64,000 bases of DNA from Kineococcus sp. NBC_00420 (GTDB lineage Bacteria > Actinomycetota > Actinomycetes > Actinomycetales > Kineococcaceae). Both the position numbers and the translations under genes were made by a program. This document shows, piece after piece, positions 29,827-43,855 of this stretch. Below the pieces are notes generated by a model. The model did not search any database. It was not told the DNA's origin and saw only the letters and a program-made list of their open reading frames with translations. Within the stretch, counting starts at the first letter, position 1. Each line of letters opens with the position of its first letter. Location of the stretch: the NCBI RefSeq assembly GCF_036021035.1, contig NZ_CP107930.1:2542001-2606000 (forward strand). The letters run 5' to 3'.

Positions 29827-29970
29827 GTGGATCTCCCTTCACGCTCTGGAGTCATCCTGCCGGAGGGTGGTGACATGCGAGGGCTGAGGACGATCCTGAC
29901 CGTCTGAAGCTGGCCGTCCTCCGCGACTCTCGTGACGGCGATCAAGTGCAGATGACTGCCCTCTTGTGCC

Positions 29971-30060
29971 TCGACTTCCGCAACACAGTACCCTCGAGTT
30001 CCGCAGGAAAGAGGCCTCTAGAATCGCAATTCCCGGGCCTCGCTTCCGCAGCTCGCGTAC
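29971..30060 (+). repeat. Four imperfect 23-bp-pitch repeats over the promoter of the first DUF4143 ATPase gene
   Basis: Repeat units start at 29971, 29994, 30017 and 30040. Three contain TTCCGCA after a TCG-rich start (tcgacttccgca, tcgagttccgca, tcgcttccgca). The third unit is degenerate (tctagaatcgca). The first three starts are exactly 23 bp apart; the fourth unit lacks one base. The array ends on the -10 box of the leaderless promoter, so a protein bound here would control transcription. See the matching array at 36,878-36,964. Confidence 0.7.
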
Positions 30061-30063
30061 ACT
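30058..30063 (+). promoter_or_regulatory. -10 box of leaderless promoter for the first DUF4143 ATPase
   Basis: TACACT lies 6 nt before GTG 30070. No -35 hexamer is visible because the region is occupied by the repeat array. Confidence 0.5.
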
Positions 30064-30069
30064 GGTCGC

Positions 30070-31329
30070 GTGCAAGACGCGCAGCTGGGTCGGCGCATGG
30101 CCGACATCGCCGCCACCAGGTTGACCGAGGAGCAGGTTCTCCTCATCGAGGGTCCGCGCTCGGTCGGCAAGTCGACGCTCCTGCGCCACCTGGCTACCCA
30201 GGCCGGCGTGGAGGTCATCGACCTCGACGACCTCGACACACGTGAAGCGGTGAGCCGAGACCTCCGGCTCTTCGCCGCCGGCGACCCTCCGGTCTGCTTC
30301 GACGAGTACCAGAAGGTCCCGCTGGTCCTCGACGCCATCAAGGCAGAGCTCAACCACGCCGGACGACCGGGGCGTTTCGTCCTGGCCGGCTCCACGCGCT
30401 TCGACGCGCTCCCGACGGCAGCGCAGTCACTCACCGGCCGCCTGCACCGGCTCACCCTTCGGCCCTTCTCCCAGGGCGAGCTCGACCGGCACGAGGAGCA
30501 CTTCCTGCCGATGGCCTTCGAAACGCCCAAGTCCCTGGTCGAGCTCGGTCCGTCACGCGTCGGGCGCGACGAGGTCATCCGTCGCGTCACCACCGGCGGC
30601 TTTCCGCTGGCCGTCGAGCGACCGACCACCGCTGCCCGCAACCGGTGGTTCGACGACTACGTACGACTGACTCTCGAGCGCGACGTCCGCGACCTGTCCC
30701 GGGTCCGTCAGGCCGCCGCGCTCCCACAGCTCCTGGAACGGCTGGCCGGACAGACGGCCCAGGTGCTCAACGTCAGCGCAGCCGCCGCCAGCGTCGGCCT
30801 CGACGACCGGACGGCCGACGGCTACACGAAGCTGCTGGAAGCGGTCTTCCTCCTCCAGCGCATCCCCGCCTGGGCGAGGACCACCTCCGCTCGCTCAGCT
30901 CTGCGTCCCAAGGTCCACCTCGTCGACTCCGGTGTCGCCGCGCGGCTGCTGCGACTGACACCCGAGAAGCTGGGACAACGCTCCGCGGTGGCCCTTCAGC
31001 AGTTCGGTCACCTGCTGGAGACTTTCGCGGTCATGGAGGTCGCCAAACAGGCGTCCTGGCGGGACGACATCGACGGGCTCCACCACTGGCGCACCCACGA
31101 CGGACTTGAGGTCGACCTGGCCGTCGAGAGGGACGACGGCACGGTGATCGGGATCGAGATCAAGGCCGGTGGGCGCCTGCCGGGTGATGACTTCCGGGGC
31201 CTTCGTGCCCTGCGGGACCAGATCGGGGAGCAGTTCGTGGCGGGGTACGCGCTCTACCTCGGCGAACACGCTTACACCTACGAGGACAGGCTGCACGCCC
31301 TGCCACTCGACCGCTTGTGGACGGCGTGA
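30070..31329 (+). CDS. AAA ATPase with C-terminal DUF4143 domain
   Basis: The 419-aa protein has a P-loop near 28-35 (IEGPRSVGKSTLL) and an acidic Walker B (PPVCFDEYQKVP, about 73-84), as in AAA_14 ATPases. A DUF4143 region (about 215-400) ends with EVDLAVERDDG and GIEIKAGG, which resembles a PD-(D/E)XK nuclease core (D...E-x-K). The start is GTG, leaderless (TACACT plus 6 nt). Its function in bacteria is poorly known; such genes are common in defence islands and as solitary genes. Four 23-bp-pitch repeats cover its promoter. It is followed by MazG on the same strand. Another family member, with its own array, lies at 35,591-36,871. Confidence 0.82.
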   Translation: MQDAQLGRRMADIAATRLTEEQVLLIEGPRSVGKSTLLRHLATQAGVEVIDLDDLDTREAVSRDLRLFAAGDPPVCFDEYQKVPLVLDAIKAELNHAGRPGRFVLAGSTRFDALPTAAQSLTGRLHRLTLRPFSQGELDRHEEHFLPMAFETPKSLVELGPSRVGRDEVIRRVTTGGFPLAVERPTTAARNRWFDDYVRLTLERDVRDLSRVRQAAALPQLLERLAGQTAQVLNVSAAAASVGLDDRTADGYTKLLEAVFLLQRIPAWARTTSARSALRPKVHLVDSGVAARLLRLTPEKLGQRSAVALQQFGHLLETFAVMEVAKQASWRDDIDGLHHWRTHDGLEVDLAVERDDGTVIGIEIKAGGRLPGDDFRGLRALRDQIGEQFVAGYALYLGEHAYTYEDRLHALPLDRLWTA

Positions 31330-31400
31330 GGGCACGATCCCCGCGGAAGTCACGGCGTACGCGATGCAGCAGTCGGCGACGCCTGACCGAGGCTCAGAAC

Positions 31401-31406
31401 TAGGAT
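31401..31406 (+). promoter_or_regulatory. -10 box of leaderless promoter for the MazG gene
   Basis: TAGGAT lies exactly 6 nt before ATG 31413, a good -10 match, and no Shine-Dalgarno sequence is present. The MazG/helicase pair therefore has its own promoter. Confidence 0.5.
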
Positions 31407-31412
31407 CCGATC

Positions 31413-31733
31413 ATGGACGAACGGACCGTGCAGGAGCAGCTGCGCGAGATGGTGGCCGAGCGCGACTGGGCTCAGTTCCACACCCCCGAGAACCTCGCGA
31501 AGAGCATCGCCATCGAGGCGGGCGAGCTGCTGGAATGCTTCCAGTGGTCCTCCGAGGCCGACCCGCAGCGAGTGCGGGGTGAGCTGGCGGACGTGTTCAC
31601 CTACTGCCTCCTCCTCGCCGACGCGCTCGGCATGGACGCGGACACCGTCGTCGTGGAGAAGCTCGCCGAGACGCGGCTGAAGTACCCGGTCGAGAAGGCG
31701 CGAGGGCGGAGCACCAAGCATGACCGACTTTGA
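31413..31733 (+). CDS. MazG-like nucleotide pyrophosphohydrolase
   Basis: The 106-aa protein has the all-alpha NTP pyrophosphatase metal motif: E35-x2-E38 in IEAGELLECFQW and E57-x2-D60 in ELADVF. Such enzymes cleave NTPs or dNTPs to monophosphate and pyrophosphate. The ATG is preceded by TAGGAT and 6 nt, so it should be leaderless. It overlaps the next gene by 14 bp and is surely co-translated with it. Pairing with a GIY-YIG/DUF2075 helicase suggests a role in nucleotide control during stress or phage infection; this is inference. Confidence 0.85.
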   Translation: MDERTVQEQLREMVAERDWAQFHTPENLAKSIAIEAGELLECFQWSSEADPQRVRGELADVFTYCLLLADALGMDADTVVVEKLAETRLKYPVEKARGRSTKHDRL

Positions 31734-33429
31734 GATCCAGCAGTTCACGTTCTCCGGCGAGGACCTCAAGGCCTGGCAGGCGCTCGACGGGCGGCACCGC
31801 AACTGGCCGGTCGTGTACACGCTGGACGGAGCGGGGAAGGTCTACGTCGGCGAATCGCTGAACGCCGCCGGGCGCTTCAAGCAGCACCTCGACACGACGA
31901 AGAAGGCACTGCGTCACGCTCGCGTCGTACTGGACCCGACCTTCAACAAGTCGGTGTGCCTCGACCTGGAATCACACCTGATCCGCTGGTTCCACGGGGA
32001 CGAGAAGTACCAGGTCCTCAACCGGAACGACGGGATCACCAACGCCGACTACTACCTCCGCTCGACGTACCGGCCCACCTTCGAGGCGATCTTCGACGAG
32101 CTGCGCGAGCTGGGTGCGTTCAGCCGCTCCATCAAGGAGATCGAGAACACCGACCTCTTCAAGCTGTCGCCCTTCAAGGCCCTCACCCCGGACCAGGCGA
32201 TCGCCGTCGAGGACATCCTCTCGGGACTGTTCGACGACCTCGAGCACGACCGGTCCAGCCGCATCGTGATCCAGGGCGATCCTGGAACCGGTAAGACGGT
32301 CGTCGGGATCTACCTGATGAAGCTTCTGAGCGACATCAAGAACGCGGACCTGAGCGAACCCGTCGACAGCGACTCCTTGCTCTCCGAGTTCTTCGTCGAG
32401 GGCTACCCGCAGCTCTTGCGGGACTTCCGGGTCGGCCTGGTGGTGCCGCAGCAGTCCCTGCGCGGCTCGATCCGGAAGGTCTTCAAGAAAACGCCCGGCC
32501 TCGGCCCTGACATGGTCATCACGGCCTTCGAGGCCGGCAAGGCGGACGACATGTTCGACCTGCTGATCGTGGACGAGGCACACCGCCTCAACCAGCGGGC
32601 CAGTCTCGGCTCCGGTCCGCAGAACGCCGACTTCCGCGTCGTGAACGAGAAGCTCTTCGGACACGACGACCCGGAACTCACGCAGCTCGACTGGATCAAC
32701 AAGATCAGCCGGCACCAGATCTACCTCATCGACGCAGCGCAGACGGTCCGCCCCGCGGACCTGCCGCGAGCGGCTCTGGACGCCCTGGTGTCGACGGCAC
32801 ACACGGCGAAGCGGCACTACCGGCTCACGTCCCAGATGCGCGTCCAGGCTGGGTCCGACTACGTCGGCTACGTGCGCGGCGTCCTCGACGGCTCGGTGAC
32901 GAAACGCCAGACGTTCGAGGGGTACGACCTCCGGTTCTTCGACAGTCTGCAGGCCATGCGGACAGCGATCATCGAGCAGGACGCGTCGCACGGTCTCGCT
33001 CGTCTCCTGGCCGGCTACGCGTGGCCCTGGGCGAGCAAGAAGGATCCCCAGGCCTTCGACATCGTCGTCGACGGAGTCGAGCTGTGGTGGAACAAGACGC
33101 AGGTCGACTGGGTCAACACGACAACGTCCCTCGACGAGGTCGGTTCCATCCACACCATCCAGGGGTACGACCTCAACATTGCGGGCGTCATCATCGGCGG
33201 CGACCTGCGGTTCGATCCCGCCAGCGAGCGCCTCGTCTTTGACAAGGCGAGCTACTTCGACGCCAAGGGGAAGCAGAACAACGTCAAGCGCGGGATCACG
33301 TACTCCGACGAGGAGCTGCTCCAGTTCGTCAAGAACATCTACGCGGTGCTGTTGACACGAGGAATCCTGGGGACCTACGTCTACGTCCACGACACGACGT
33401 TGAGGGAGTACCTCCGCCGGTTCTTCTGA
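31720..33429 (+). CDS. GIY-YIG nuclease fused to DUF2075 SF1-type helicase
   Basis: The 569-aa protein starts with a GIY-YIG domain (about 28-110): VVYTL at 31-35, KVYVGESLNAAGRFKQH at 40-56 and a Glu in LDLESHL near 84. A DUF2075 helicase follows (about 150-569) with QGDPGTGKT near 185, LLIVDEAHR near 281 and SQMRVQAGSDYV. It should bind and perhaps cut and unwind nucleic acid. It overlaps the MazG gene by 14 bp, a coupling that suggests one functional unit. The two nuclease motifs appear complete. Its exact role is unknown. Confidence 0.85.
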   Translation: MTDFEIQQFTFSGEDLKAWQALDGRHRNWPVVYTLDGAGKVYVGESLNAAGRFKQHLDTTKKALRHARVVLDPTFNKSVCLDLESHLIRWFHGDEKYQVLNRNDGITNADYYLRSTYRPTFEAIFDELRELGAFSRSIKEIENTDLFKLSPFKALTPDQAIAVEDILSGLFDDLEHDRSSRIVIQGDPGTGKTVVGIYLMKLLSDIKNADLSEPVDSDSLLSEFFVEGYPQLLRDFRVGLVVPQQSLRGSIRKVFKKTPGLGPDMVITAFEAGKADDMFDLLIVDEAHRLNQRASLGSGPQNADFRVVNEKLFGHDDPELTQLDWINKISRHQIYLIDAAQTVRPADLPRAALDALVSTAHTAKRHYRLTSQMRVQAGSDYVGYVRGVLDGSVTKRQTFEGYDLRFFDSLQAMRTAIIEQDASHGLARLLAGYAWPWASKKDPQAFDIVVDGVELWWNKTQVDWVNTTTSLDEVGSIHTIQGYDLNIAGVIIGGDLRFDPASERLVFDKASYFDAKGKQNNVKRGITYSDEELLQFVKNIYAVLLTRGILGTYVYVHDTTLREYLRRFF

Positions 33430-33511
33430 TGTACGAGGGCATGTCCACTACTGCGCGTGGCGTGGTCGGACCCGATGGACCACCGCGAGAAACGTCCTGG
33501 AGGGAGACACC

Positions 33512-34570
33512 ATGGACCCGCTCGACCTCGGCGCCCGCCTCGCCCAGCTCCTGGCGACAGGCCGTCGCGTCTCGACGTACAAGCTCGCGACCCTGGACGC
33601 CCTCGTCCAACACTGCCTGGAGAACCCCGTCGCCGACGACGCGCCGCTCAGCGTACCCGTCCGCGACCTCGCGTCCCGGGTCGTCGAGGCGTACTGGCCG
33701 CAGGTCCGGGTGTTCGGTGAGCACGGGGTGCTGCGGCAGATCCAGCACACCCGTCCAGGCGCCGTGTCGGTCATCGATCTGGTCACCGATCTGCGGCGGA
33801 ACAGCGACCGTCGGGGCCTGTCCACGCCGGCGCAGTTCCGGACCGAGGAGCCCCACCAGTGGACGGCCACGGTGCGGAAGATCGCGATCACCCTGGCCAG
33901 GCAGCCTCTGTTCCGCCTGCAGAAGACGGGAGGTCGGGAGCCGGGGGTCGCGTTCCTGTACGACGATTCCTGGCTCAGCGATGACGTCGGCATCGGGAAC
34001 CTCGACGCGCACGACTGGTCCATCGAGTTGTTTCCCGGGGTCGCAACGGCCTTGGCGCGGGTTTCCCCGATGCTGCAACCCGTCCTGCAGCAGTGGTGGG
34101 TCGAGGACGTCCAGCGCCACAACAGCGCCGAACTCGAGATCCCCGACCTGCACGCGTTCCTGTTCGACGCGGACCGCACGGCCGTTGCACGACTGGCCCC
34201 CGGTCTGCGGGAGTTCCAGCAGAACCGCTGCTTCTACTGCGGTAGGACCCTCACCGGGGCGGTGCACGTCGACCACGTGCTGCCGTGGTCGCGGGTCGCC
34301 ATCGACGGGGTGCGGAACCTGGTGCTCACCGATCCGCGTTGCAACGGCGACAAGGCGGCCACACTGCCGGTCCTCGACCACGTGCGGGAGGTCCTGGCCC
34401 GGCCCGAGGCGGACCTCGTCGTCATCTCTGCACCGGTGCGCTGGCCGGTCGAGACGGAGCGGGTGCGCGGCGCGGCCCGCGGGCTGTACCGGTCGACGGG
34501 CGCGGGCTCTCCGCTGTGGCGCGCTCCCGGGTTGTACGACTTCCACGACGGCACCGCCGTCCCGCTCTGA
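33512..34570 (+). CDS. HNH endonuclease family protein
   Basis: The 352-aa protein has a C-terminal HNH domain (about 238-285): CFYCG near 240, VHVDHVLPWS near 252 and a later N and DPRCNGDKA, whose Cys may complete a zinc site. The N-terminal 230 residues are not recognised; they may read the target. ATG 33512 is preceded by GGAGGGAG. It lies 82 bp after the helicase gene on the same strand. A restriction-like role is likely given the setting. No methylase is nearby. Confidence 0.8.
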   Translation: MDPLDLGARLAQLLATGRRVSTYKLATLDALVQHCLENPVADDAPLSVPVRDLASRVVEAYWPQVRVFGEHGVLRQIQHTRPGAVSVIDLVTDLRRNSDRRGLSTPAQFRTEEPHQWTATVRKIAITLARQPLFRLQKTGGREPGVAFLYDDSWLSDDVGIGNLDAHDWSIELFPGVATALARVSPMLQPVLQQWWVEDVQRHNSAELEIPDLHAFLFDADRTAVARLAPGLREFQQNRCFYCGRTLTGAVHVDHVLPWSRVAIDGVRNLVLTDPRCNGDKAATLPVLDHVREVLARPEADLVVISAPVRWPVETERVRGAARGLYRSTGAGSPLWRAPGLYDFHDGTAVPL

Positions 34571-34701
34571 CCACCTGTTTCCCAGCCCGTCGCGGCGCTC
34601 ATCCGAATCGAGACGACAACGGATCCGCAGCCCCTTCCGCCATTGCCCCAGCCGGGTGACGCCCCATCAAGCGGCCGGCACCGGCTCCCGAAACCCCTGG
34701 C

Positions 34702-35586
34702 ATGGGGGCTGCCGGGGCAGGAGCAGACGAGCAGGCCCGACGCGCGGCGGCGCACGTGGAGCGGCTCCGTCGCCAACCCACGACCGAGGACACGACAGCC
34801 CGCCTCGACGCCGCCGAACGACGCCACCACGCGTGGTCCGCCGGGGCCGAAGGCGAGCGCCTGGTCGCCGAGACCCTCGGGGAGCTCGAGGCCGAGGGAT
34901 GGTTCGTCCTGCACGACGTCCACTGGCCCGGCCGCCCGAAGGCGAACCTCGACCACGTCGCGGTCGGTCCCGGCGGGGTCGTCGTCATCGACGCGAAGAA
35001 CTGGTCGGGGCAGGTGACCGTCCGGGACGGTGTGCTGCGCAACGAGTCGTGGCGCAAGGACCGGGAACTGGAAGGGATCGCGAGCGCCGCCGCGGCCGTC
35101 GCCGCGCTGCTGGAACCGGCGGTCCGCTCGACGACACAGGGCCTGCTCTGCCTGGTCGCCCAGGACCAGCAGCCCCAGGCGACGACGTCCGGGGTCACCG
35201 TCGTGGGGCGCGCCCACCTCGTCGCCGTCGTGCGCGGGCTGGAACGTCGACTGGGGGCCGACGAGGTCGAGCGGATCGCGACCTTCCTGCGGGCCACCCT
35301 CGACGGTGCCCGCAGCCCCGTGCTCGTGACCACCGCCGACGTCGGCACCCCGACACCCGCACCCCACGAACCGCCCGCGCGAGCGAGGCGCCCGGTGGCG
35401 GCACGCCCCAGGCCGATCCCGCGGAGGACGCACCGCCGGCCCTCGTGGTCTCGGCGGCTGCTGCTCGTGCTCCTCACCCTGGCCATGGCGGGGCTCATCG
35501 GGTTCCTCGGGATGGTGGTCGGGCTGACGGTGCTCCAGGGGATGGCCGACAGCCTGGTCCCACCGCCGGCGGCGAGCAGCCCCTGA
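34702..35586 (+). CDS. NERD domain protein with C-terminal membrane segment
   Basis: The 294-aa protein has a NERD (nuclease-related) domain at about 45-160, with GAEGERLVAETL, NLDHVAVGPGGVVVIDAKNW (the D...D-x-K-like core) and WRKDREL. A Pro/Arg-rich linker and one membrane helix (LLLVLLTLAMAGLIGFLGM, about 252-275) follow, so the NERD domain should face the cytoplasm. NERD proteins are thought to act on DNA or RNA, but few are tested. It converges on the DUF4143 gene at 35,591 with a 4-bp gap. No clear Shine-Dalgarno sequence precedes ATG 34702, so the start is less certain. Confidence 0.8.
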   Translation: MGAAGAGADEQARRAAAHVERLRRQPTTEDTTARLDAAERRHHAWSAGAEGERLVAETLGELEAEGWFVLHDVHWPGRPKANLDHVAVGPGGVVVIDAKNWSGQVTVRDGVLRNESWRKDRELEGIASAAAAVAALLEPAVRSTTQGLLCLVAQDQQPQATTSGVTVVGRAHLVAVVRGLERRLGADEVERIATFLRATLDGARSPVLVTTADVGTPTPAPHEPPARARRPVAARPRPIPRRTHRRPSWSRRLLLVLLTLAMAGLIGFLGMVVGLTVLQGMADSLVPPPAASSP

Positions 35587-35590
35587 CGGC

Positions 35591-36871
35591 TCACGGCCCG
35601 AGCAACGCCGCGGGCACCACTGCGATCCCGTCCCGTCGGCGGTAGGCCTCGGGGCCGGTCGTGACGACGACGGCGTCGAGCAGGTTCTCACCGAGCGCCC
35701 CTCGCAACCAGGTCAGGTGCTTCACGTCGGCGTCGGTCACCGCCCCGGCCACCTTCACCTCGAGGGCTACGACCTTGCCGTCGTTCCGCTCGATGATCAG
35801 GTCCACCTCGTGGTCCCCGCCGCGCAGACGAAGGTGCCCGGTCCGGGCTTCCGCCGCCTGCGCGTACGCCCGCACGTCGAGCGTCACCAACGACTCGAAC
35901 AGCTGGCCCAGCAACGTCGCCTCTCGCCCGGGCCGCCGGGCCGGCTCGGCACCCGCGAGCGCCGCGGCGTCGACGCCGAGCAGTCGTGCCGCGAAGGCCG
36001 GGTCGGCGAGGTGGTGCTTGGGTGCCGCCGCGAGGCGGGCGAGGTGGTTGCGGGACGGCGTCCAGGCGGGAACGGGGTCGAGGAACCACAACCGTTGGAG
36101 GATGTCCCGGTAGGCGGTGGTCGTGGTCTTGGCGGGCTTGTCGAGGTCTCCCGGAGTCGCCGCCTCGAGCAGGCGGTCGTACGCGGTCGACGTGGAAACG
36201 GCTGCGGCGTAGGCCGACATCCAGCGACGCAGCGGGGCGGGATTGCGAACGGCCCGTCCGAGGTCCGGGAAGTCGCGGTCGATGATGCTGTCCACGTAGC
36301 CGTCGAGCTGGGCTCGGCGGAGGCGCGGCGACAGCGCCCGCACAGCGGGTAGTCCCGAGCGACAGATCTCGTCGGCGTACTCGTCGATCCCGACGCCGGT
36401 CGCGCCGGCGACGTCGCCCCGTCGCCCCGTCAGGAGCTGCGCCAAGGAGACCGTCGGCCGCGCGACACCACGTTCGGACAGCGTCATGGGGCGCATTCGC
36501 AGGCGCACGATCCGACCGGCACCGCTGTGGACACCGGTGTTCCTGGGCACGGCCGACCCCGCGAGCAAGAACGATCCGGGCGCAGTTCCGTCGTCCACGG
36601 CCCGTCGCACCGCGTCCCAGGTCGGCGGGACTCGTTGCCACTCGTCGATGAGCACCGGGGGCTCGCCCCGGAGAACTCGGCCGGGGTCGGCCGCCACGAG
36701 ATCGCGCTGGGCGGGGTCGTCCAACTGGACGACCGTCTCAACGTGCTGGAGACCGGAGCGGGTCTTGCCGACGCCCTTCGCACCCTCGAGGGCGACTGCC
36801 GCCAAGCCCGCCAGGTACTTGGCGAGCTCCGCGTCGACGACGCGAGGCGAGTACCCGCCAGCAGCAGCCAT
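35591..36871 (-). CDS. Second AAA ATPase with DUF4143 domain
   Basis: The 426-aa protein has a P-loop GAKGVGKT at 30-37 and Walker B PPVLIDEWQRVP near 70-82. A DUF4143 region with a terminal EVDLIIERNDGKVVALEVKV block has the D...E-x-K look of a nuclease core. It is the same family as the protein at 30,070-31,329 but clearly diverged. ATG 36871 is preceded by TAGCGT and exactly 6 nt, which suggests a leaderless transcript. The upstream 90 bp hold four 23-bp-pitch repeats unlike those of the other gene. It is divergent from the Wadjet operon; whether it controls or assists Wadjet is unknown. Confidence 0.83.
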   Translation of the reverse strand: MAAAGGYSPRVVDAELAKYLAGLAAVALEGAKGVGKTRSGLQHVETVVQLDDPAQRDLVAADPGRVLRGEPPVLIDEWQRVPPTWDAVRRAVDDGTAPGSFLLAGSAVPRNTGVHSGAGRIVRLRMRPMTLSERGVARPTVSLAQLLTGRRGDVAGATGVGIDEYADEICRSGLPAVRALSPRLRRAQLDGYVDSIIDRDFPDLGRAVRNPAPLRRWMSAYAAAVSTSTAYDRLLEAATPGDLDKPAKTTTTAYRDILQRLWFLDPVPAWTPSRNHLARLAAAPKHHLADPAFAARLLGVDAAALAGAEPARRPGREATLLGQLFESLVTLDVRAYAQAAEARTGHLRLRGGDHEVDLIIERNDGKVVALEVKVAGAVTDADVKHLTWLRGALGENLLDAVVVTTGPEAYRRRDGIAVVPAALLGP

Positions 36872-36877
36872 GCAGCG

Positions 36878-36883
36878 ACGCTA
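36878..36883 (-). promoter_or_regulatory. -10 box of leaderless promoter for the second DUF4143 ATPase
   Basis: TAGCGT on the minus strand lies 6 nt before ATG 36871 and is itself part of the first repeat unit. Confidence 0.45.
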
Positions 36884-36964
36884 ACCTTCCACTACTCATC
36901 TACGCTACTTTCTGGCGTTTTCCGACGCTACCTTCTGGCGGCGCGAGGAGCTACCTCCTGACGC
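36878..36964 (-). repeat. Four imperfect 23-bp-pitch repeats over the promoter of the second DUF4143 ATPase gene
   Basis: On the minus strand the consensus is CGCCAGAAGGTAGCGT. The shared GCTA (plus strand) falls at 36880, 36904, 36927 and 36950, spacings of 24, 23 and 23. The two central units match at 15 of 16 bases; the outer units are weaker. The copy nearest the gene includes the TAGCGT -10 box. The array also lies about 80 bp upstream of the Wadjet start. Confidence 0.7.
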
Positions 36965-37044: not shown

Positions 37045-38589
37045 GTGCAGTACCAGCCCTTCGCCCACCTGGGGACGGAGCTGACGGAGACCTACCGGGC
37101 GGTCCTCGACGTCTTCGCGGAGGCCCGCGCCCGCTACGTCCTGCACCTGCGCCCCGAGGACGTCCTCGCCGAGCTCACCGGCCGGGACCCACTCGACCTG
37201 AACCGGGTGAGCACCGCCCTGGGACGCCTGGTCGACTGGGGAAACCTGCGTGCCGATCCGGACACCGCGCGGGTCGAGACGGTCGAGGACTTCCACCGGG
37301 CCCGGTTCCTGTACCAGCTCACCCCCGAGGGTCTCGCCGCCGAACGCGCCCTCCAGACCTACGACGAGAACCTGGGCCGACGGGGAGCTCTGCAGGCCGT
37401 CGCCCTCGGCGACATCGTCGAGCACCTGCGCGCTCTGGTCGTCCTGGCCGAGTCCGGCGAGCCCGATCCAGCGCAGGCCTCGGTGTTGCTCGCGGTGCTC
37501 GTGACCCGGCTGGAGTCGTTGGCGGACAACGCGTCGGTCTTCATGGGGTCGTTGCAACGCTCGATCGACCTGCACGACGCCGACACCGACGCGTTCCTCG
37601 CCTACAAGGACCGCATCATCGACTACCTCGAACGGTTCCTCTCCGACCTCGTGACGATCGGCGCAGAGATCAGCGGGCTGGTCGCGCGGGCCGAGGACCT
37701 CGACGTGGACCGCCTGCTGGTGGCGGTCGCGGAACGTGAGGCCTCCGACGTGGCCCCGGGGACCGAGGACGACTCCGCACGCGCCGCGGAGCTGGCCCGG
37801 CTGACGCTGCTGTGGCGACAGCGGTGGTGCGGCCTGCACGACTGGTTCCGCGGAACGCGGTCGAGCCCGAGCCAGAAGGACCTCCTCCGGCGCAGAGCCC
37901 GTTCGGCGATCCCCCAACTGCTGCGGGCCGTCGCCGTCCTCAACGAACGCCGCACCGGCCGCTCGGACCGTTCGGCCGACTTCCGCCGGCTCGCGGTGTG
38001 GTTCGCCGAGGCGCCGGACGACGCCGCCCGGCACCGGTTGTGGCGCGCCGCCTTCGGGGTGAGCCCGGCACGCCACCTCAGCATCGACACCGACTCGCTG
38101 ACCGCCCGCGACGAGCAGCCCGTGCCGTCGAGCACCCCGTGGGCGCAGGCTCCACCGTTGCAGATCAGTCCTCAGTTCCGTCGCACCGGACACCACGAAC
38201 GCCGCGGTCGCATCGCACAGGTCGCCGACCGGTCCCTCGCCCGCCGGCACCTGGCCGAGCAGGCCGACGCCGAGGTGGCCCAACTCGCGGCTGCCCGCGC
38301 GGAACTCCTCCGCAGCGGAGCCACCCGGCTCTCGGAACTTCCCGAACTCTCCACCCCGGCCTTCGGGTTGTTCCTCGGCCTGCTCGGGCAGGCCGTCACC
38401 GCCCGGCACGCCGACCGGCGGTCCGCCCCGGTCCGGGCGACGTCCGCCGACGGTTCGCTGGACATCGTCCTGACCCCCGTCGCCGAGGCCGGGAGGACCA
38501 CCGTGAGAACTCCGGACGGCGCCTTCACGATCGACGACTGCCTCCTGGTGATCGTCGACAACGACGAAGCACCGGACGGTGCGGCGTGA
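37045..38589 (+). CDS. jetA: Wadjet type I subunit JetA (kleisin-like)
   Basis: The 514-aa protein resembles the TIGR02677 (DUF2397) family. It has an N-terminal winged-helix region (TALGRLVDWGNLRADPDTARV) with a long helical middle, as in MukF-like kleisins. With JetB and JetC it forms the SMC complex that loads on plasmid DNA, extrudes loops and lets JetD cut small circles. The start is GTG with GGAGG ten bases upstream. Its stop overlaps jetB by 4 bp (GTGA). The order A-B-C-D and the families define type I Wadjet. Confidence 0.88.
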   Translation: MQYQPFAHLGTELTETYRAVLDVFAEARARYVLHLRPEDVLAELTGRDPLDLNRVSTALGRLVDWGNLRADPDTARVETVEDFHRARFLYQLTPEGLAAERALQTYDENLGRRGALQAVALGDIVEHLRALVVLAESGEPDPAQASVLLAVLVTRLESLADNASVFMGSLQRSIDLHDADTDAFLAYKDRIIDYLERFLSDLVTIGAEISGLVARAEDLDVDRLLVAVAEREASDVAPGTEDDSARAAELARLTLLWRQRWCGLHDWFRGTRSSPSQKDLLRRRARSAIPQLLRAVAVLNERRTGRSDRSADFRRLAVWFAEAPDDAARHRLWRAAFGVSPARHLSIDTDSLTARDEQPVPSSTPWAQAPPLQISPQFRRTGHHERRGRIAQVADRSLARRHLAEQADAEVAQLAAARAELLRSGATRLSELPELSTPAFGLFLGLLGQAVTARHADRRSAPVRATSADGSLDIVLTPVAEAGRTTVRTPDGAFTIDDCLLVIVDNDEAPDGAA

Positions 38590-39785
38590 GCGAGCGACTC
38601 AGCCGACGGCTGGAACTCGACCGCAGCAGCGAACGCCGCAGGGCGGCCCGGACCCTGCTGGCGAACCCCCTGCTGTTGCCCCGGGGACCCCAGGCCGACG
38701 AGTTCGTCCTCGTGCGCCGGCACGCCGACCACCTGCGGAGGTGGTTCGACCGGGAGACCGGGTGGCGGCTGCGGGTGGAACCGGAACTCGCCCGGCTGGA
38801 GAAGGTCCCGGCCGATGCGACGGACGGGACACGGCCCGCGCTGGACCGCCAGGGCCGCCCGCTGACCCGACGCCGCTACGTCCTGCTCTGTCTCGCGCTG
38901 GCCGCCCTGGAACGCTCCGAGGCCCAGACGACCCTCGGCCAACTGGCGGAGGAGGTCCTGCTCATGGTCACCGACGAGGAGTTCAGCAGCGTCGGTCTGA
39001 CGTTCAGCCTCGAGACGCGCGACGAACGTGGGGACCTGGTCGCCGTGGTCCGGGCCCTCCTCGCCCTGGGCGTGCTCAGCCGCATCAGCGGGGACGAGGA
39101 CGCCTTCGTCGCGAGCGGTGGTGACGTCCTCTACGACGTGGACCGGCACGTGCTGGCCGCGCTGCTGGTGGCACCGCGGGGGCCGTCGTTGCTCGCCGAG
39201 GTGGCACCCGAGGACCGGTTGACCGAACTCCTCGCCACCACGCCACCCCTCACCGACGACGCCCGCAACCACGCACTGCGGCAACGTCTCACGCGCCGAT
39301 TGCTGGACGACCCGGTCCTGCTGGCGGCTGAACTGGACGCCGACGAGCGGGCCTACCTCCTCAGCCAGCGGCGCGCCCTCGTGGACCGCGTCGAGGAGTT
39401 CACCGGACTGCGCGCGGAGATCCGGGCCGAGGGGGTCGCCATGGTGGATCCCGCAGACGACCTCACCGACCTCCGGATGCCGGAGGACGGGACCGACGGG
39501 CACGTGGCCCTGCTGGTCGCCGAGCGGCTGCTGGACGCCGACCCCGACGCCGTCCCCGTGCGGGTGCTGCACGCGATGGTCGCGTCGCAAGCGAGCCGGT
39601 ACGCCGCCTACTGGCGCAAGGACGCCCGACTGGCGGGGGCGGAGGTGGGCCTCGTCACCATCGCGGTCGACCGTCTCGAGGCACTGCACCTCGCCCGACG
39701 CGAGACCGACGCCGTCCGCGCCCTCCCCCCGCTGCACCGCTACGCACTGACCCCGGCCGGACCCCTCGGAGGCTCGACACCGTGA
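38586..39785 (+). CDS. jetB: Wadjet type I subunit JetB (KITE/MukE-like)
   Basis: The 399-aa protein (MSERLSRRLELDRSSERRRA...) resembles TIGR02678 (DUF2398). It contains winged-helix segments near RRRYVLLCLALAALERSEAQ. KITE proteins bind the kleisin and help shape the SMC ring. I placed the start at GTG 38586, which overlaps the jetA stop. A longer in-frame extension to 37812 would lie wholly inside jetA and is a shadow. Its stop overlaps jetC by 4 bp. Confidence 0.87.
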   Translation: MSERLSRRLELDRSSERRRAARTLLANPLLLPRGPQADEFVLVRRHADHLRRWFDRETGWRLRVEPELARLEKVPADATDGTRPALDRQGRPLTRRRYVLLCLALAALERSEAQTTLGQLAEEVLLMVTDEEFSSVGLTFSLETRDERGDLVAVVRALLALGVLSRISGDEDAFVASGGDVLYDVDRHVLAALLVAPRGPSLLAEVAPEDRLTELLATTPPLTDDARNHALRQRLTRRLLDDPVLLAAELDADERAYLLSQRRALVDRVEEFTGLRAEIRAEGVAMVDPADDLTDLRMPEDGTDGHVALLVAERLLDADPDAVPVRVLHAMVASQASRYAAYWRKDARLAGAEVGLVTIAVDRLEALHLARRETDAVRALPPLHRYALTPAGPLGGSTP

Positions 39786-42700
39786 ACCTGCCCGTCCCGC
39801 ACCTCGATCGCTGGCAACCGCTGCGGCTCGGTCTCGTCGACCTGTACCACTACGACACCGAGGAGTTCTGGTTCCACGACGGCCGTCTCCTGCTGCGCGG
39901 CAACAACGGAGCGGGCAAGTCGAAAGTGCTCGCGTTGACGCTCCCGTTCCTGCTGGACGGGGATACCTCGCCCTACCGCGTCGAGCCCGACGGTGACCGG
40001 AAGAAGCACATGGAGTGGAACCTGCTCCTCGGGGGAGCCCACGAGAACTCCGAACGGACCGGGTACGCGTGGCTGGAGTTCGGCCGGCTCGACGCCGAGA
40101 CCGGCCCGGAGTTCTTCGGGATCGGCTGCGGGATGAAGGCCGTCCGCGGTCGCAGCGGCGTCACGACGTGGTTCTTCACGACCTCCCGGCGCATCGGCGC
40201 GGAGCTCTCGCTGATCAGCCCGTCCCGCACAGCCTTGGCCAAGGCCCGCCTCGCCGAGGCCATCGGAGCGACGGGCACCGTCCACGACACCGCCAAGGGC
40301 TACCGCAAGCAGCTCGACGAGAAGCTGTTCCGGCTCGGTGAGGACCGGTACGCCGCTCTGGTGGACCTGCTGATCCAGCTGCGCCGACCGCAACTGACGA
40401 AGGAACCGGACGAAGCGCTGACGTCGGCCGCGCTCACCGAAGCGCTGCCCCCGATCGACGGGGGCATTCTCGCCGACGTCGCGGAGGCGTTCCGCGCGCT
40501 GGAGGAGGACCGCCGGGACCTCGAGGCGGTGGTCGAGGCCCGCGACGCCGCCGGCCGGTTCCTCGAGCACTACCACCGCTACGCGTGCACGGCAGCCCGC
40601 CGCCGCGCCGAGGCCCCCCGGCTGGCCCAGTCCGCCTACGAGGAGGTCCGTCGACAGCTGGGCCTGGCGCACGCGCAACGGCAAGAGGCCGAAACTGCCG
40701 TCCGAAGGGCCGAGACCACGCTCGAGGAACTCGACCTGGAACTGCAGCGCCTGCAGGCCCGGGAGAAGGCCCTGCAGGACAGTGACGACGCGCGGGCCGC
40801 GACAGACCTCCAGCAGGTCGCGGCCGCCGCGACGCGGGCACGTGAGGCAGCCCGGACCTCAGCCGAGCTGCACGATCAGGCGCTGGCCCGGGAACGCACC
40901 GCCGAGCGGGAGCTGGAGGACGCACGCACCGAGCACGACCGGGCCGCCACCGAGACCAGCGCGGCCGCTCACGACGTGCTGACCGCCGCGACCGCCGCCG
41001 GCCTGCCGACCGACGACCTCGAGGCGACCGACCCTGCCACGGTGCGCACCCGCGCGGAGCGCGAGACCGCGCGGCGTGCCGGGCAGGTGCGTCACGTCTC
41101 CGCCCTGCTCGACGAGGTCGCCTCCCTCGAGCGTGAACACCGACGGCTGCAGACCCAACTCGACCGGGAGGAGGCCGCCGCCGCCAGACTGCAGGAGCGT
41201 CTCGCCCTCGCGCGGGCCGACGTCGCCACCCGCGCCGCCGAGCACGTCGCCGACCTGCGCGCGCACCTCGCGTCGACGTCGCAACTCCGCGTCGACGACC
41301 TGGAAGGTCTGCTCTCCCGGACCCAGGTCTGGACCGAGTCGATGACCGGTGCCTCGCCGGCCCGCACGGCCGTCACCACAGCGGTCGAACGGCGCAGTCG
41401 GACGCTGGGGGGCCGCGACGCGGACCTGAGGAGTGCGCAGAGGGCGCGGAGCGACGCCATCGACACCCTGGAGGCCGAACGCGGACGACTCCTCGCCGGA
41501 GAGGACAGCTCGCCCCCCGCGGCGCGGTTCCGCGGGTCCGGCCGCGACCGTGACGGAGCACCCCTGTGGCGCCTGGTCGACTTCCGGGAGGATCTGACGG
41601 CCCTCGAGCGAGCGGGTCTCGAGGGAGCCCTGGAGGCCTCCGGGTTGCTCGACGGCTGGGTGTCCCCCGCGGGCGACCTCACCAGCCCGGACGGAGAGGC
41701 GCTGCTGGTGCCCACCACCGGGCGACCGCGACGATCCCTGGCGGGTCTGCTGCGTCCAGCCGTGGACCGCGAGGAACCTCGGGCGGCGACGGTCTCCGAC
41801 CCCACCCTCACGACCCTGCTCGAGTGCATCGGGACGGGCGAGGGCGAGGTGCGGGCCGACGTCGACGGCAGCTACCAGCTCGGGGTCCTGACGGGGCGGT
41901 GGTCGAAACCCGAGGCGGAGTTCCTGGGTCGGGGCGCCCGGGAAGCGGCGCGCCGCCGACGCCTGCGCGAGATCGACGAAGAGACCCGGCTCCTGCAGTC
42001 CGAGGTCGCCGCGCTCCAGGAGCAGATCACCGAGGTCGAGGAGCACCTGCGCGTCCTCGGCGTCGAACTCGCGGAGGTTCCCGACGAAGGCCCCCTGCGG
42101 AGTGCCCACTCGCTGGTCCTCACGCTGAGCACCGCGGTGACCGAAGCGGAGGAGCAGCTCGAACGCGATCGCGCGGACGTGACCGCGGCCCGGGAACGGG
42201 CCCTCTCCCGCCGCGCGGGCGGCGAGGACGACGCCGGACAACTCGGGCTGCCGTTCACCAGCGAGGGCCTCCAGGAGGTCACCGGGGCCCTGGCGGAGTT
42301 CCGGCTGGCCGTCGCCGGCTACGTCCCGGCCCGCGTCCGCCTGCAGCTCGCCACGACTCGGGTGAGCACGACGTCGGGCGCCGCGCAGCTGCGGCAGGAG
42401 GAGTCGAGAGCCGCGCAGCGGGAACTGGCGACCCGACGCGGCGAGGAGGCCGCCGCCGCCGAACGCTTCACCACACTCGAGGCCACGGTGGGTGCGGCCG
42501 TTCAGGAACTCCGCCGGCGCCTCGGGGAGGTGGAGACGGCCCGTAGGAAGGCCCGGGACAGTGAACGCACCACCCGTTCCCGCCTCACGACGACGACCGA
42601 GGCGCTCGGTCACGCGAAGGGGGAGATCGTGCGCCTCGACCTCGACCTCGCCCAGGAGACCGAACGACGCGCGACGGCCGCCGAGAGCCTGTACCGGTTC

Positions 42701-43855
42701 GCCTGCACGGGTGTCCTCGCTGTCGCCCTCCCCGAGCTGGAGATCCCGGACACCGCAGTGGTGTGGGCCCCGGACCCCACCGTCCGTCTGGCGCGCCAGG
42801 TCGAACAGGCCCTCGAGATCCCCTTCGACGACAACGCCTGGCGCCGGGTGCAGCAGACCGTGACGGAGGAGGTGAAACCCCTCGCCGACACGCTCTCCCG
42901 TCACGGGCACTCGGCGGAACTCAACCTGTCCGAGGACGTCGTCCGCGTCGAGGTCCGCTACGCCGGACGACCCAGGACCGTGCCGGCGCTGCGCGATGAA
43001 CTCGTCGCCGACGCGGAGCAGCGTCGACAACTCCTCGACGCGCGGGAACGCGAGGTCCTGGAGAACCACCTCGTCGCCGAGGTCGCGAGCGCCCTGCAGG
43101 AACTCATCGGAGCCGCCGACCGCCAGGTCAACGACATGAACGCCGAACTGGAACGCCGCCCCACGAGCACCGGCATGCGGTTGCGGATGCAGTGGCGTGT
43201 CGTCGAGGACGGTCCCGCGGGTCTCACCCAGGCGCGGGAACGGCTGTTGCGGCAGAGCGCCGATGCCTGGTCGCTCTCCGACCAGTCCGCGGTCGGAGCC
43301 TTCCTCAAGGACCGCATCGACGCCGTGCGCGCCGACCGCGAAGGGGTCGGCACGTGGCTGGAACACCTCACGACCGCGTTGGACTACCGGTCGTGGCACC
43401 GGTTCGTCGTGCAGCGCTACCAAAACGGGCAGTGGCGGCCCGCGTCCGGCCCCGCGTCGGGCGGGGAGAAGGTGCTCGCCGCCAGCGTTCCCCTCTTCGC
43501 CGCGGCCTCGGCGCACTACCGCTCGGCAGGCAACCCGCACGCGCCCCGGATCATCACCCTCGACGAAGCCTTCGCCGGCGTGGACGACACCGCGCGGGCC
43601 GACTACCTCGGGTTGCTGGCCGAGTTCGACCTCGACGTCGTCATGACCAGCGAACGAGAGTGGGCGTGCTACCCGCAGGTGCCGGGGATCGCGATCAGCA
43701 ACGTCTCCCGTCGGGAGGGCGTCGACGCCGTCCTCGTCACCTCCTACCGGTGGGACGGGCGTCGCAAGCAGCGGGTCGCACGCCCGGTCAGTCAGGAACT
43801 GCCGGTCGTCGCGCCCCGGACCGGCGTTCCGGACCAGGAGGGCCTGTTCCCGTGA
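39782..43855 (+). CDS. jetC: Wadjet type I subunit JetC (SMC/MukB-like ATPase)
   Basis: The 1357-aa SMC-like ATPase (TIGR02680 type) has Walker A GNNGAGKS at 40-47, two long coiled-coil stretches (about 285-480 and 700-1010) around a hinge-like region, an ABC signature SGGEK near 1226 and Walker B IITLDEAF near 1258. It drives DNA loop extrusion. All key motifs look intact. The start is GTG, overlapping the jetB stop, and the stop overlaps jetD, so the operon is tightly coupled. The very long antisense frame over this gene is a GC-rich shadow. Confidence 0.92.
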   Translation: MNLPVPHLDRWQPLRLGLVDLYHYDTEEFWFHDGRLLLRGNNGAGKSKVLALTLPFLLDGDTSPYRVEPDGDRKKHMEWNLLLGGAHENSERTGYAWLEFGRLDAETGPEFFGIGCGMKAVRGRSGVTTWFFTTSRRIGAELSLISPSRTALAKARLAEAIGATGTVHDTAKGYRKQLDEKLFRLGEDRYAALVDLLIQLRRPQLTKEPDEALTSAALTEALPPIDGGILADVAEAFRALEEDRRDLEAVVEARDAAGRFLEHYHRYACTAARRRAEAPRLAQSAYEEVRRQLGLAHAQRQEAETAVRRAETTLEELDLELQRLQAREKALQDSDDARAATDLQQVAAAATRAREAARTSAELHDQALARERTAERELEDARTEHDRAATETSAAAHDVLTAATAAGLPTDDLEATDPATVRTRAERETARRAGQVRHVSALLDEVASLEREHRRLQTQLDREEAAAARLQERLALARADVATRAAEHVADLRAHLASTSQLRVDDLEGLLSRTQVWTESMTGASPARTAVTTAVERRSRTLGGRDADLRSAQRARSDAIDTLEAERGRLLAGEDSSPPAARFRGSGRDRDGAPLWRLVDFREDLTALERAGLEGALEASGLLDGWVSPAGDLTSPDGEALLVPTTGRPRRSLAGLLRPAVDREEPRAATVSDPTLTTLLECIGTGEGEVRADVDGSYQLGVLTGRWSKPEAEFLGRGAREAARRRRLREIDEETRLLQSEVAALQEQITEVEEHLRVLGVELAEVPDEGPLRSAHSLVLTLSTAVTEAEEQLERDRADVTAARERALSRRAGGEDDAGQLGLPFTSEGLQEVTGALAEFRLAVAGYVPARVRLQLATTRVSTTSGAAQLRQEESRAAQRELATRRGEEAAAAERFTTLEATVGAAVQELRRRLGEVETARRKARDSERTTRSRLTTTTEALGHAKGEIVRLDLDLAQETERRATAAESLYRFACTGVLAVALPELEIPDTAVVWAPDPTVRLARQVEQALEIPFDDNAWRRVQQTVTEEVKPLADTLSRHGHSAELNLSEDVVRVEVRYAGRPRTVPALRDELVADAEQRRQLLDAREREVLENHLVAEVASALQELIGAADRQVNDMNAELERRPTSTGMRLRMQWRVVEDGPAGLTQARERLLRQSADAWSLSDQSAVGAFLKDRIDAVRADREGVGTWLEHLTTALDYRSWHRFVVQRYQNGQWRPASGPASGGEKVLAASVPLFAAASAHYRSAGNPHAPRIITLDEAFAGVDDTARADYLGLLAEFDLDVVMTSEREWACYPQVPGIAISNVSRREGVDAVLVTSYRWDGRRKQRVARPVSQELPVVAPRTGVPDQEGLFP

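What the first reader, a model, noticed from the sequence alone, without database searches (positions are those of the whole stretch)
36872..36964. The second DUF4143 ATPase gene has its own, different 23-bp-pitch array
Units of consensus CGCCAGAAGGTAGCGT recur at spacings of 24, 23 and 23, immediately upstream of ATG 36871; the nearest unit contains the -10 box. The sequence differs from the array at 29,971-30,060, but pitch, copy number, position and the 6-nt -10-to-start spacing agree. The same layout with a gene-specific sequence suggests each ATPase pairs with its own repeat, as in an autoregulated or self/non-self recognition system. I know of no described DUF4143 system with this feature.
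Basis: partly seen in the sequence, partly recalled or inferred. Interest (0 to 1): 0.82.

Follow-up and report, generated by a model that had tools for sequence, protein, structure and literature searches.

The report
Self-read promoter arrays of ATPase-nucleases
A very common but uncharacterised bacterial ATPase-nuclease, suspected of defending against phages, carries in its own promoter a row of about 23-base repeats whose letters change in step with two DNA-reading spots of the protein, so each protein appears to read and control its own private address.

Summary
In detail: four units (spacing 23, 23, 24) upstream of the DUF4143 gene at 36871, and a different four-unit array upstream of the gene at 30070. 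Within this window the statistics are modest. Across relatives they are overwhelming: lag 23 is the best self-match upstream of 115 of 137 actinomycete loci and 74 of 80 orthologues from many phyla, against 5 of 149 other genes and 1 of 218 coding windows. Arrays mark one large clade of DUF4143 proteins, not the whole family.

The repeat letters covary with the protein. In 87 orthologues, residue 248 (start of the winged-helix recognition helix) sets unit base 13: Lys never goes with T (0 of 52), Arg usually does (22 of 24). Residue 350 (a hairpin beside the PD-(D/E)XK active site) sets base 8: Arg/Lys with C in 39 of 40, others in 3 of 46. Both predict held-out bases much better than the nearest relative does. 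The same two regions emerge, less cleanly, in a second clade about 30% identical.

So the ATPase very probably binds its own array. The last unit overlaps the -10 box, which argues for autorepression. Self/non-self recognition remains untested.

The parts
35591..36871 (-). AAA_14 + DUF4143 ATPase-nuclease gene (A2), ATG start, leaderless layout
   Evidence: Pfam AAA_14 1.1e-9 and DUF4143 4.8e-22; PADLOC PDC-S01 1.7e-75
36880..36963 (-). A2 array: four units at 36950-36963, 36927-36940, 36904-36917, 36880-36893
   Evidence: positions; lag 23 best
36878..36883 (-). -10-like TAGCGT inside the gene-proximal unit, 6 nt before ATG
   Evidence: read; in relatives last units carry TANNNT in 82 of 102 arrays against 113 of 232 upstream units
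36092..36130 (-). codons of A2 recognition helix 248-260; residues 247-249 covary with unit bases 13-18
   Evidence: helix in AlphaFold2 model; covariation
35789..35845 (-). codons of A2 beta-hairpin 343-361; turn residues 350-353 covary with unit bases 5-8; E355 and D357 belong to the nuclease motif
   Evidence: model; covariation; conservation
30070..31329 (+). AAA_14 + DUF4143 ATPase-nuclease gene (A1), GTG start, leaderless layout; 31% identical to A2
29969..30050 (+). A1 array: units at 29969-29982, 29992-30005, 30015-30028, 30038-30050
   Evidence: positions; lag 23 best
30058..30063 (+). -10-like TACACT just downstream of the last A1 unit, 6 nt before GTG
   Evidence: read

Best explanation
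The array is a private operator of the ATPase. One protomer reads one directly repeated unit: the start of the recognition helix of its winged-helix domain reads the gene-proximal half (bases 13-18), and a hairpin beside the active site of its PD-(D/E)XK domain reads the distal half (bases 5-8). Usually three to four protomers line up head to tail, all pointing at the gene, and reach over the promoter (in the A2 clade over the -10 box itself), so the protein represses its own transcription until something removes it. Shown by computation: arrays, their clade, position, orientation, and covariation with the two reading spots. Inferred: physical binding, one protomer per unit, head-to-tail oligomer through the ATPase domains, repression, and release by an unknown trigger (infection being the guess, from the phage-defence-candidate label).
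For: Arrays: 115 of 137 and 74 of 80 loci with lag 23; controls 1 of 218 and 5 of 149. Covariation in 87 non-redundant A2-clade proteins: the strongest of all 426 x 23 residue-base pairs is 248-13 (Z 36 against 40 permutations), then 350-8 (Z 19.5) and 235-7 (Z 16). 248 (76 rows with a resolved base): K with T in 0 of 52, R with T in 22 of 24; 16 changes on a tree built without these columns; of 8 supported independent pairs 7 go together, 0 opposite. 350 (86 rows): R/K with C in 39 of 40, others 3 of 46; 19 changes; H with G in 16 of 16. Half-unit scans, A2 clade: left half best with windows 346-347 (0.22, highest of 200 permutations 0.156), right half with windows 246-247 (0.37, highest 0.294). 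Held-out prediction: 248 gives 69 of 76 bases (majority 48, nearest relative 41); 350 gives 70 of 86 (42, 35); arbitrary control columns 100 and 300 give 48 of 86 and 43 of 76. Second clade (53 A1-like proteins): left half tracks windows starting at 343-350 and 371-373, right half windows starting at 245-248; residue 350 is the best column among 802 close pairs (r 0.44); R/K350 with C in 33 of 33 resolved (others 8 of 15). Orientation towards the gene 101 of 101 (A2 clade), 44 of 53 (A1-like). Last unit carries TANNNT in 82 of 102 versus 113 of 232 upstream units, p 4e-8. In two genes with a leader the array stays at the promoter, not at the start codon: about 16 nt upstream of TATCTTTG in Bacteroides ovatus and of TATAAT in Collinsella (read; box names recalled).
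Against: No binding, expression or structure experiment exists here. Permutation Z values ignore kinship; the tree-aware sign tests reach p 0.016 (248) and a median 0.03, range 0.016-0.22 (350) only, because few supported independent pairs exist; pairs for 235 and 353-R are too few to test. Residues outside the two spots also reach Z 8-10 with some base (69-7, 104-7). 353 and 249 hardly beat the majority base in held-out prediction (46 of 83 against 41; 44 of 79 against 40). The whole-unit window scan of the A2 clade tops at the recognition helix but barely passes its null (0.245 against 0.244). In the A1-like clade the tree-aware test is not significant (2.8 same, 0 opposite, 3.2 no difference) and the His rule fails in 5 of 6, possibly a register error; the whole-unit scan stays within its null (0.233 against a 95% limit of 0.237), the half-unit scans had no null, and windows at 277 (left) and 58-62, 92 (right) also score. 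The window's own A2 has L235, which goes with G/T at base 7, but its units have C or T. Some clade members lack a detectable array (6 of 51; 6 of 80).
Confidence: 0.8

Rival explanations
1. The ATPase binds its own array but as an activator (positive autoregulation), the units acting like an enhancer.
For: Binding itself is as well supported as for repression; STAND relatives such as MalT activate transcription (recalled).
Against: In the A2 clade the gene-proximal unit sits on the -10 box and matches it better than other units do, which suits occlusion rather than recruitment. Where the array ends about 16 nt before the -10 box (Bacteroides, Collinsella) an activator is not excluded.
Confidence: 0.15
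2. Another regulator binds the array; the ATPase is only the regulated gene.
For: No call shows that the ATPase binds DNA.
Against: The repeat follows two specific spots of the ATPase itself in two clades, while the nearest relative's array predicts it poorly; paralogues in one genome have different units (by eye, G154 and G209).
Confidence: 0.04
3. The array is a set of tandem promoters, the 23-bp pitch being the 6+17 bp distance between -35 and -10 boxes.
For: Pitch equals the usual hexamer-to-hexamer distance (recalled); A2-clade units contain TAGCGT.
Against: By eye, units of other subfamilies hold no -10-like hexamer in their conserved part (e.g. L083, L133) yet keep the layout, and upstream A2 units often lack TANNNT (119 of 232); covariation with the protein is unexplained.
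Confidence: 0.03
4. The array is an iteron-like replication or partition site used by an ORC/Cdc6-like ATPase.
For: The ATPase plus winged-helix part also resembles ORC/Cdc6 (Z about 9-10), and some copies are on plasmids.
Against: Usually only 3-4 units; nuclease residues kept in 217-221 of 221; two such genes close together in one chromosome here.
Confidence: 0.03

Closest known systems
PDC-S01 phage defence candidate (PADLOC; AAA_14 + DUF4143)
   Same: Both window genes hit PDLC04790 strongly. A 2026 survey (PMC12988326, passages read) calls PDC-S01 the fourth most common defence across prokaryotes, an ATPase fused to a PD-(D/E)XK domain, and says validation is pending for most such candidates.
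   Different: No promoter array or DNA-reading code is mentioned in the passages read; the same PADLOC model also hits proteins of the clade without arrays (10 of 10 array and 10 of 10 no-array proteins scanned), so PDC-S01 is a mixture.
STAND / NB-ARC ATPases (archaeal ATPases 2qen and 2fna, CED-4, plant NLRs)
   Same: Residues 2-323 fold like ATPase plus winged helix (2qen Z 15.1, rmsd 4.2, 248 aligned; 2fna Z 13.9; RPP1 12.6; CED-4 12.5).
   Different: Here the winged helix carries a base-reading code and a PD-(D/E)XK domain follows it; the proteins are short (about 420 aa) and lack a long sensor region.
ORC/Cdc6 initiators on origin DNA
   Same: ATPase with a winged helix that binds DNA (recalled); ORC chains appear at Z 9-10.
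   Different: Repeats are at the protein's own promoter and differ from gene to gene; nuclease domain present.
Iteron-binding Rep proteins and autorepressing regulators with operator arrays (recalled)
   Same: Direct repeats of about 20-23 bp near the own promoter, autoregulation expected.

Membership tests
AAA_14 / DUF4143 ATPases | Pfam AAA_14 and DUF4143 above gathering score | tested here: met
   both window proteins
PDC-S01 (PADLOC) | strong hit to a PDC-S01 profile over the whole protein | tested here: met
   2.5e-142 and 1.7e-75 to PDLC04790
PDC-S01 (PADLOC) | anti-phage activity | not tested
   no experiment; literature passages say validation pending
STAND / NB-ARC-like ATPase | ATPase + helical + winged-helix arrangement | tested here: met
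   model pLDDT 88, pTM 0.90; 2qen Z 15.1, CED-4 12.5
STAND / NB-ARC-like ATPase | Walker A and B residues | tested here: met
   G30, G35, K36, D76 in 221 of 221, E77 in 220 of 221
PD-(D/E)XK nucleases | fold | tested here: met
   C-terminal model: EndoMS Z 8.5, Can2 8.0, McrC 7.6, FokI 6.6, EcoRV 6.4; no Foldseek E below 0.001, so a modest match
PD-(D/E)XK nucleases | catalytic acidic residues and ExK | tested here: met
   E355 221, D357 219, E371 217, K373 219 of 221
PD-(D/E)XK nucleases | nuclease activity | not testable with these tools
   needs enzyme assay
Autorepressor with own operator array | array at own promoter, overlapping -10 | tested here: met
   (overlap shown for the A2 clade; in A1, Bacteroides and Collinsella the -10 lies just downstream of the last unit)
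Autorepressor with own operator array | protein residues covary with operator bases | tested here: met
Autorepressor with own operator array | binding and repression shown | not testable with these tools
   needs footprint and reporter

The most novel reading that the evidence does not exclude
The array is a lock as well as an operator: the nuclease sits on its private address as a head-to-tail ATP-dependent row of protomers, which both silences its gene and holds its catalytic domain in a harmless pose next to the DNA it reads. Infection or plasmid entry breaks the row, which at once frees active nuclease and derepresses the gene. Because each gene has its own address code, several such sentinels can coexist in one genome without cross-talk.
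Probability: 0.25. Interest if true: 0.93.

Novelty: new variant of a known kind. Interest (0 to 1): 0.87.

Why it matters
PDC-S01 is reported as one of the commonest defence candidates in prokaryotes, with validation pending (PMC12988326, passages). This finding gives one large clade of it a likely DNA ligand, a reading code of named residues and bases, and an immediate assay (binding to a 23-bp unit). It turns 'DUF4143' from an unknown domain into winged helix plus nuclease-fold hairpin that read DNA, and splits the family into a clade with arrays and one without. If right, it also supplies many naturally different protein-operator pairs. Simple swaps (Lys248 to Arg with GG to TG; Arg350 to His with C to G) would test the code directly.

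Tried and rejected
Self/non-self recognition: no evidence found either way. Link to Wadjet: the A2 array lies in the divergent region shared with jetA, but JetA/JetC matches turned up only in the window's own genome (L002, L003) among 183 loci over 3 kb (flanks are mostly 1.5-2.5 kb), so no conserved partner was seen. Arrays as a trait of all DUF4143 proteins: rejected. Phage-borne copies: no relative confirmed in viral contigs (134 pattern matches); 4 faecal phage records of 50,697 hold a distant relative. A three-unit pattern scan of viral contigs gave 2 stretches, both a perfect 23-bp tandem repeat with no DUF4143 match in the held DNA; set aside. Uniqueness of the A1 unit in the own genome could not be judged: the pattern is too common (237+228 matches with up to 2 mismatches, control 153+138) and the capped listing did not show the two exact window copies that one search finds; so the listing may also be incomplete. 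MI in the A1-like clade gave mostly pairs that I read as kinship; only the half-unit and close-pair analyses pointed to the same spots. Non-actinomycete plasmid loci: top lag 22 or 23 in 11 of 19 plus Prosthecochloris; among the 11, L233 (Moraxella) is really an inverted repeat and L148 and L236 are weak; L237 has 22-bp units but top lag 26. None clear in L231, L234, L235, L239, L240, L243 and L244 (Aliarcobacter, Thiothrix, Nitrosomonas, two Thermus, Phaeobacter, Mesorhizobium). Archaeal members were not reached. Literature searches with no description of such arrays: (open-licence PMC only; listings, and passages of three papers; two searches were swamped by common words). Absence of other families from the fold lists is not used.

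Full report
WHAT IS THERE. Two genes in the window encode AAA_14 + DUF4143 proteins: A2 at 35591-36871 (-) and A1 at 30070-31329 (+), 31% identical. They are the only two DUF4143 matches found in the 5.43-Mb genome. PADLOC files both as PDC-S01, a single-gene phage defence candidate. Upstream of A2 are four degenerate direct repeats at 36950-36963, 36927-36940, 36904-36917 and 36880-36893; upstream of A1 four others at 29969-29982, 29992-30005, 30015-30028 and 30038-30050. Lag 23 is the best self-match in both regions; 94 and 8 of 5000 shuffles do as well at any lag 15-35.

THE ARRAYS ARE A CLADE TRAIT. Relatives were fetched by protein only. Lag 23 is the best of lags 12-40 upstream of 115 of 137 actinomycete loci (22 in 11, 24 in 2; 1 more too short) and of 74 of 80 A2 orthologues, mostly MAG contigs whose titles name Actinomycetota, Planctomycetaceae, Acidobacteria, Gemmatimonadales, Chlorobiaceae, Chloroflexi, Proteobacteria and Myxococcales. 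At least four loci are in both sets. Controls: 1 of 218 coding windows, 5 of 149 upstream regions of other genes in the same loci. Of 19 plasmid loci of other groups 11 have top lag 22 or 23, clear ones being 23 bp in two Bacteroides, Collinsella and Sulfitobacter and 22 bp in several Proteobacteria; Prosthecochloris adds one. A mixed set (six genomes of other groups, those plasmids, seven further actinobacterial orthologues; 77 loci, 62 scored) showed that arrays are not universal. On a tree of 89 proteins a branch with SH-aLRT 99 separates 51 rows (45 with array) from 38 rows (1 with array, a 341-aa protein with a 22-bp signal that may be chance); the label needs 7 changes, against a shuffled mean of 29.9 (28 of the 46 array labels came from earlier calls, and two long branches meet in the no-array part). 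Ten proteins of each kind all hit the same PADLOC model.

WHERE THEY SIT. In the A2 clade 70 of 101 arrays have three units by my count, 28 four and 3 two. The right part of the unit coincides with the -10 hexamer: TANNNT at unit positions 15-20 is present in 82 of 102 gene-proximal units but 113 of 232 upstream units (p 4e-8). The distance from that hexamer to the start codon is 4-9 nt in 58 of 101, the leaderless layout seen in the window. In A1 the -10 lies just downstream of the last unit. In two genes with a leader the array stays at the promoter: in Bacteroides ovatus it ends about 16 nt before TATCTTTG, in Collinsella about 16 nt before TATAAT (read; box names recalled). So the array is most simply a DNA element of the promoter, not of the mRNA. 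Scored leave-one-out against the family consensus, 101 of 101 A2-clade arrays and 44 of 53 A1-like arrays point the same way relative to the gene.

THE PROTEIN READS IT. Units of 87 non-redundant A2-clade genes were aligned without using protein data, and every protein column was compared with every unit position (40 permutations). The strongest pair by far is residue 248 with base 13 (Z 36), then 350 with 8 (Z 19.5) and 235 with 7; 353 with 5, 351 with 7 and 249 with 16-18 follow at 5 to 10, a range that a few residues elsewhere also reach. Contents: K248 never goes with T (0 of 52), R248 with T in 22 of 24; R/K350 with C in 39 of 40 and other residues in 3 of 46; H350 with G in 16 of 16; R353 with G in 11 of 11; R235 with C or A in 51 of 56, L235 with G or T in 22 of 26. 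An Arg or Lys opposite a G of the other strand is ordinary DNA-recognition chemistry (recalled). On a tree built without these columns residue 248 changes 16 times and the base follows in 7 of 8 supported independent pairs, never the opposite way (sign test p 0.016); for 350 it follows in 6.4 of 8 on average, never the opposite way (median p 0.03, range 0.016-0.22); for 235 and 353-R too few pairs exist. Predicting from sequences under 65% identical, residue 248 gets 69 of 76 bases right (majority base 48, nearest relative 41) and residue 350 gets 70 of 86; 235 gets 55 of 83, 353 46 of 83, 249 44 of 79; arbitrary columns 100 and 300 give 48 of 86 and 43 of 76. Thus arrays drift fast, but in step with residues 248 and 350 above all.

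REPLICATION. Split into halves, the A2-clade left half tracks protein windows starting at 346-347 (0.22; highest of 200 permutations 0.156) and the right half windows 246-247 (0.37; 0.294). In 53 A1-like proteins the left half tracks windows starting at 343-350 and 371-373, the right half windows 245-248, and residue 350 is the best single column among 802 close pairs (r 0.44) (no null was run for these halves, and windows at 277 and at 58-62 and 92 score too). It is the same two spots in a clade about 30% identical. R/K350 goes with C in 33 of 33 resolved rows (others 8 of 15). Against: Ala follows the A2 rule in 3 of 4 but His in only 1 of 6 (a one-base register doubt), the tree-aware test is not significant, and the whole-unit window scan lies inside its permutation null; that of the A2 clade tops at the recognition helix but barely passes its null.

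WHAT THE PROTEIN IS. The AlphaFold2 model (pLDDT 88, pTM 0.90) has helices 231-238 and 248-260 (helix-turn-helix) and strands 343-349 and 355-361 whose turn holds 350-353. No coordinates were available to me, so whether these spots lie on one face was not measured. Residues 2-323 fold like STAND/NB-ARC ATPases with a winged helix (2qen Z 15.1; 2fna 13.9; CED-4 and plant NLRs about 12; ORC about 10). The C-terminal 127 residues modelled alone resemble PD-(D/E)XK nucleases (EndoMS Z 8.5, Can2 8.0, McrC 7.6, FokI 6.6), a modest match (no Foldseek E under 0.001). Walker residues and E355, D357, E371, K373 are kept in 217-221 of 221, so both activities are probably alive. The base-reading turn lies between the nearly invariant H346 (214) and R348 (219) and the catalytic E355/D357. 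No solved structure of the family was found by sequence (one weak FlhF match).

MECHANISM. Most likely: autorepression by head-to-tail binding of one protomer per unit. Shown: array, clade, position, orientation, covariation. Inferred: binding, stoichiometry, repression, trigger. In the own genome the two exact matches listed for the A2 unit pattern are both in the array (matches with up to 3 mismatches 43+59 against control 64+61), which suggests that A2 regulates mainly itself; the listing tool missed exact copies in another search, so this is soft. A lead on induction: a Thermus thermophilus AAA_14/DUF4143 gene, TT_P0211, rose 6.6-fold when both a plasmid and Argonaute were present (PMC4406477, passages). 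Whether TT_P0211 belongs to the array clade was not tested, and the three Thermus loci seen here have weak or no arrays.

LITERATURE. Passages of PMC12988326 call PDC-S01 the fourth most common defence in prokaryotes, with 29,494 bacterial and 9,986 archaeal instances and validation pending for most such candidates; PMC13356809 (passages) finds it the most frequent individual locus in rumen genomes. Only one paper of the library holds the word DUF4143. No paper on such arrays was found; subscription papers and most preprints were not searched.

VERDICT. 'Its own repeat for each ATPase' is right for one large clade, and the proposed residue-repeat covariation exists and is strong. Autoregulation is likely, self/non-self untested. 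As a kind, self-binding operators are known; a STAND-like ATPase-nuclease with a two-element reading code for a private promoter array is, as far as these searches reach, undescribed.

Noticed in passing
window 37045-45087 (+): Wadjet type II operon: JetA 37045-38589, JetB within 37812-39785, JetC 39782-43855, JetD 43852-45087; divergent from the A2 gene, with the A2 array between them.
   Followed up: partly
window 25168-36871: Dense defence-like island: a 1552-aa AAA/REase_MTES_1575 helicase with an Lsr2-type DNA-binding end (PADLOC PDC-S37, MkoA, MkoC, Hhe models), MazG-like 31413-31733, SLFN-g3 helicase 31720-33429, HNH protein 33512-34570, NERD protein 34702-35586.
   Followed up: partly
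genome G755 (holds L175, record titled Acidobacteria MAG): 38 DUF4143 matches in one 7.6-Mb genome; most of those that my script could read are of the clade without arrays.
   Followed up: partly
L233 (Moraxella bovis plasmid), just upstream of 589: Instead of direct repeats, a long inverted repeat (AACCTAGTTTAATTTAAGAT...) precedes the DUF4143 gene: possibly another operator type (read).
   Followed up: no
L229 20-73 and L230 11718-11771 (viral contigs): Perfect tandem copies of a 23-bp unit containing GGTAGCGT with no DUF4143 match in the held DNA; could be chance or a decoy.
   Followed up: partly
L087, L088, L249 and L133, L112, L146, L238, L241, L242: Some members use a 24-bp (first three) or 22-bp pitch with the same layout, so pitch looks like a subfamily trait.
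   Followed up: partly
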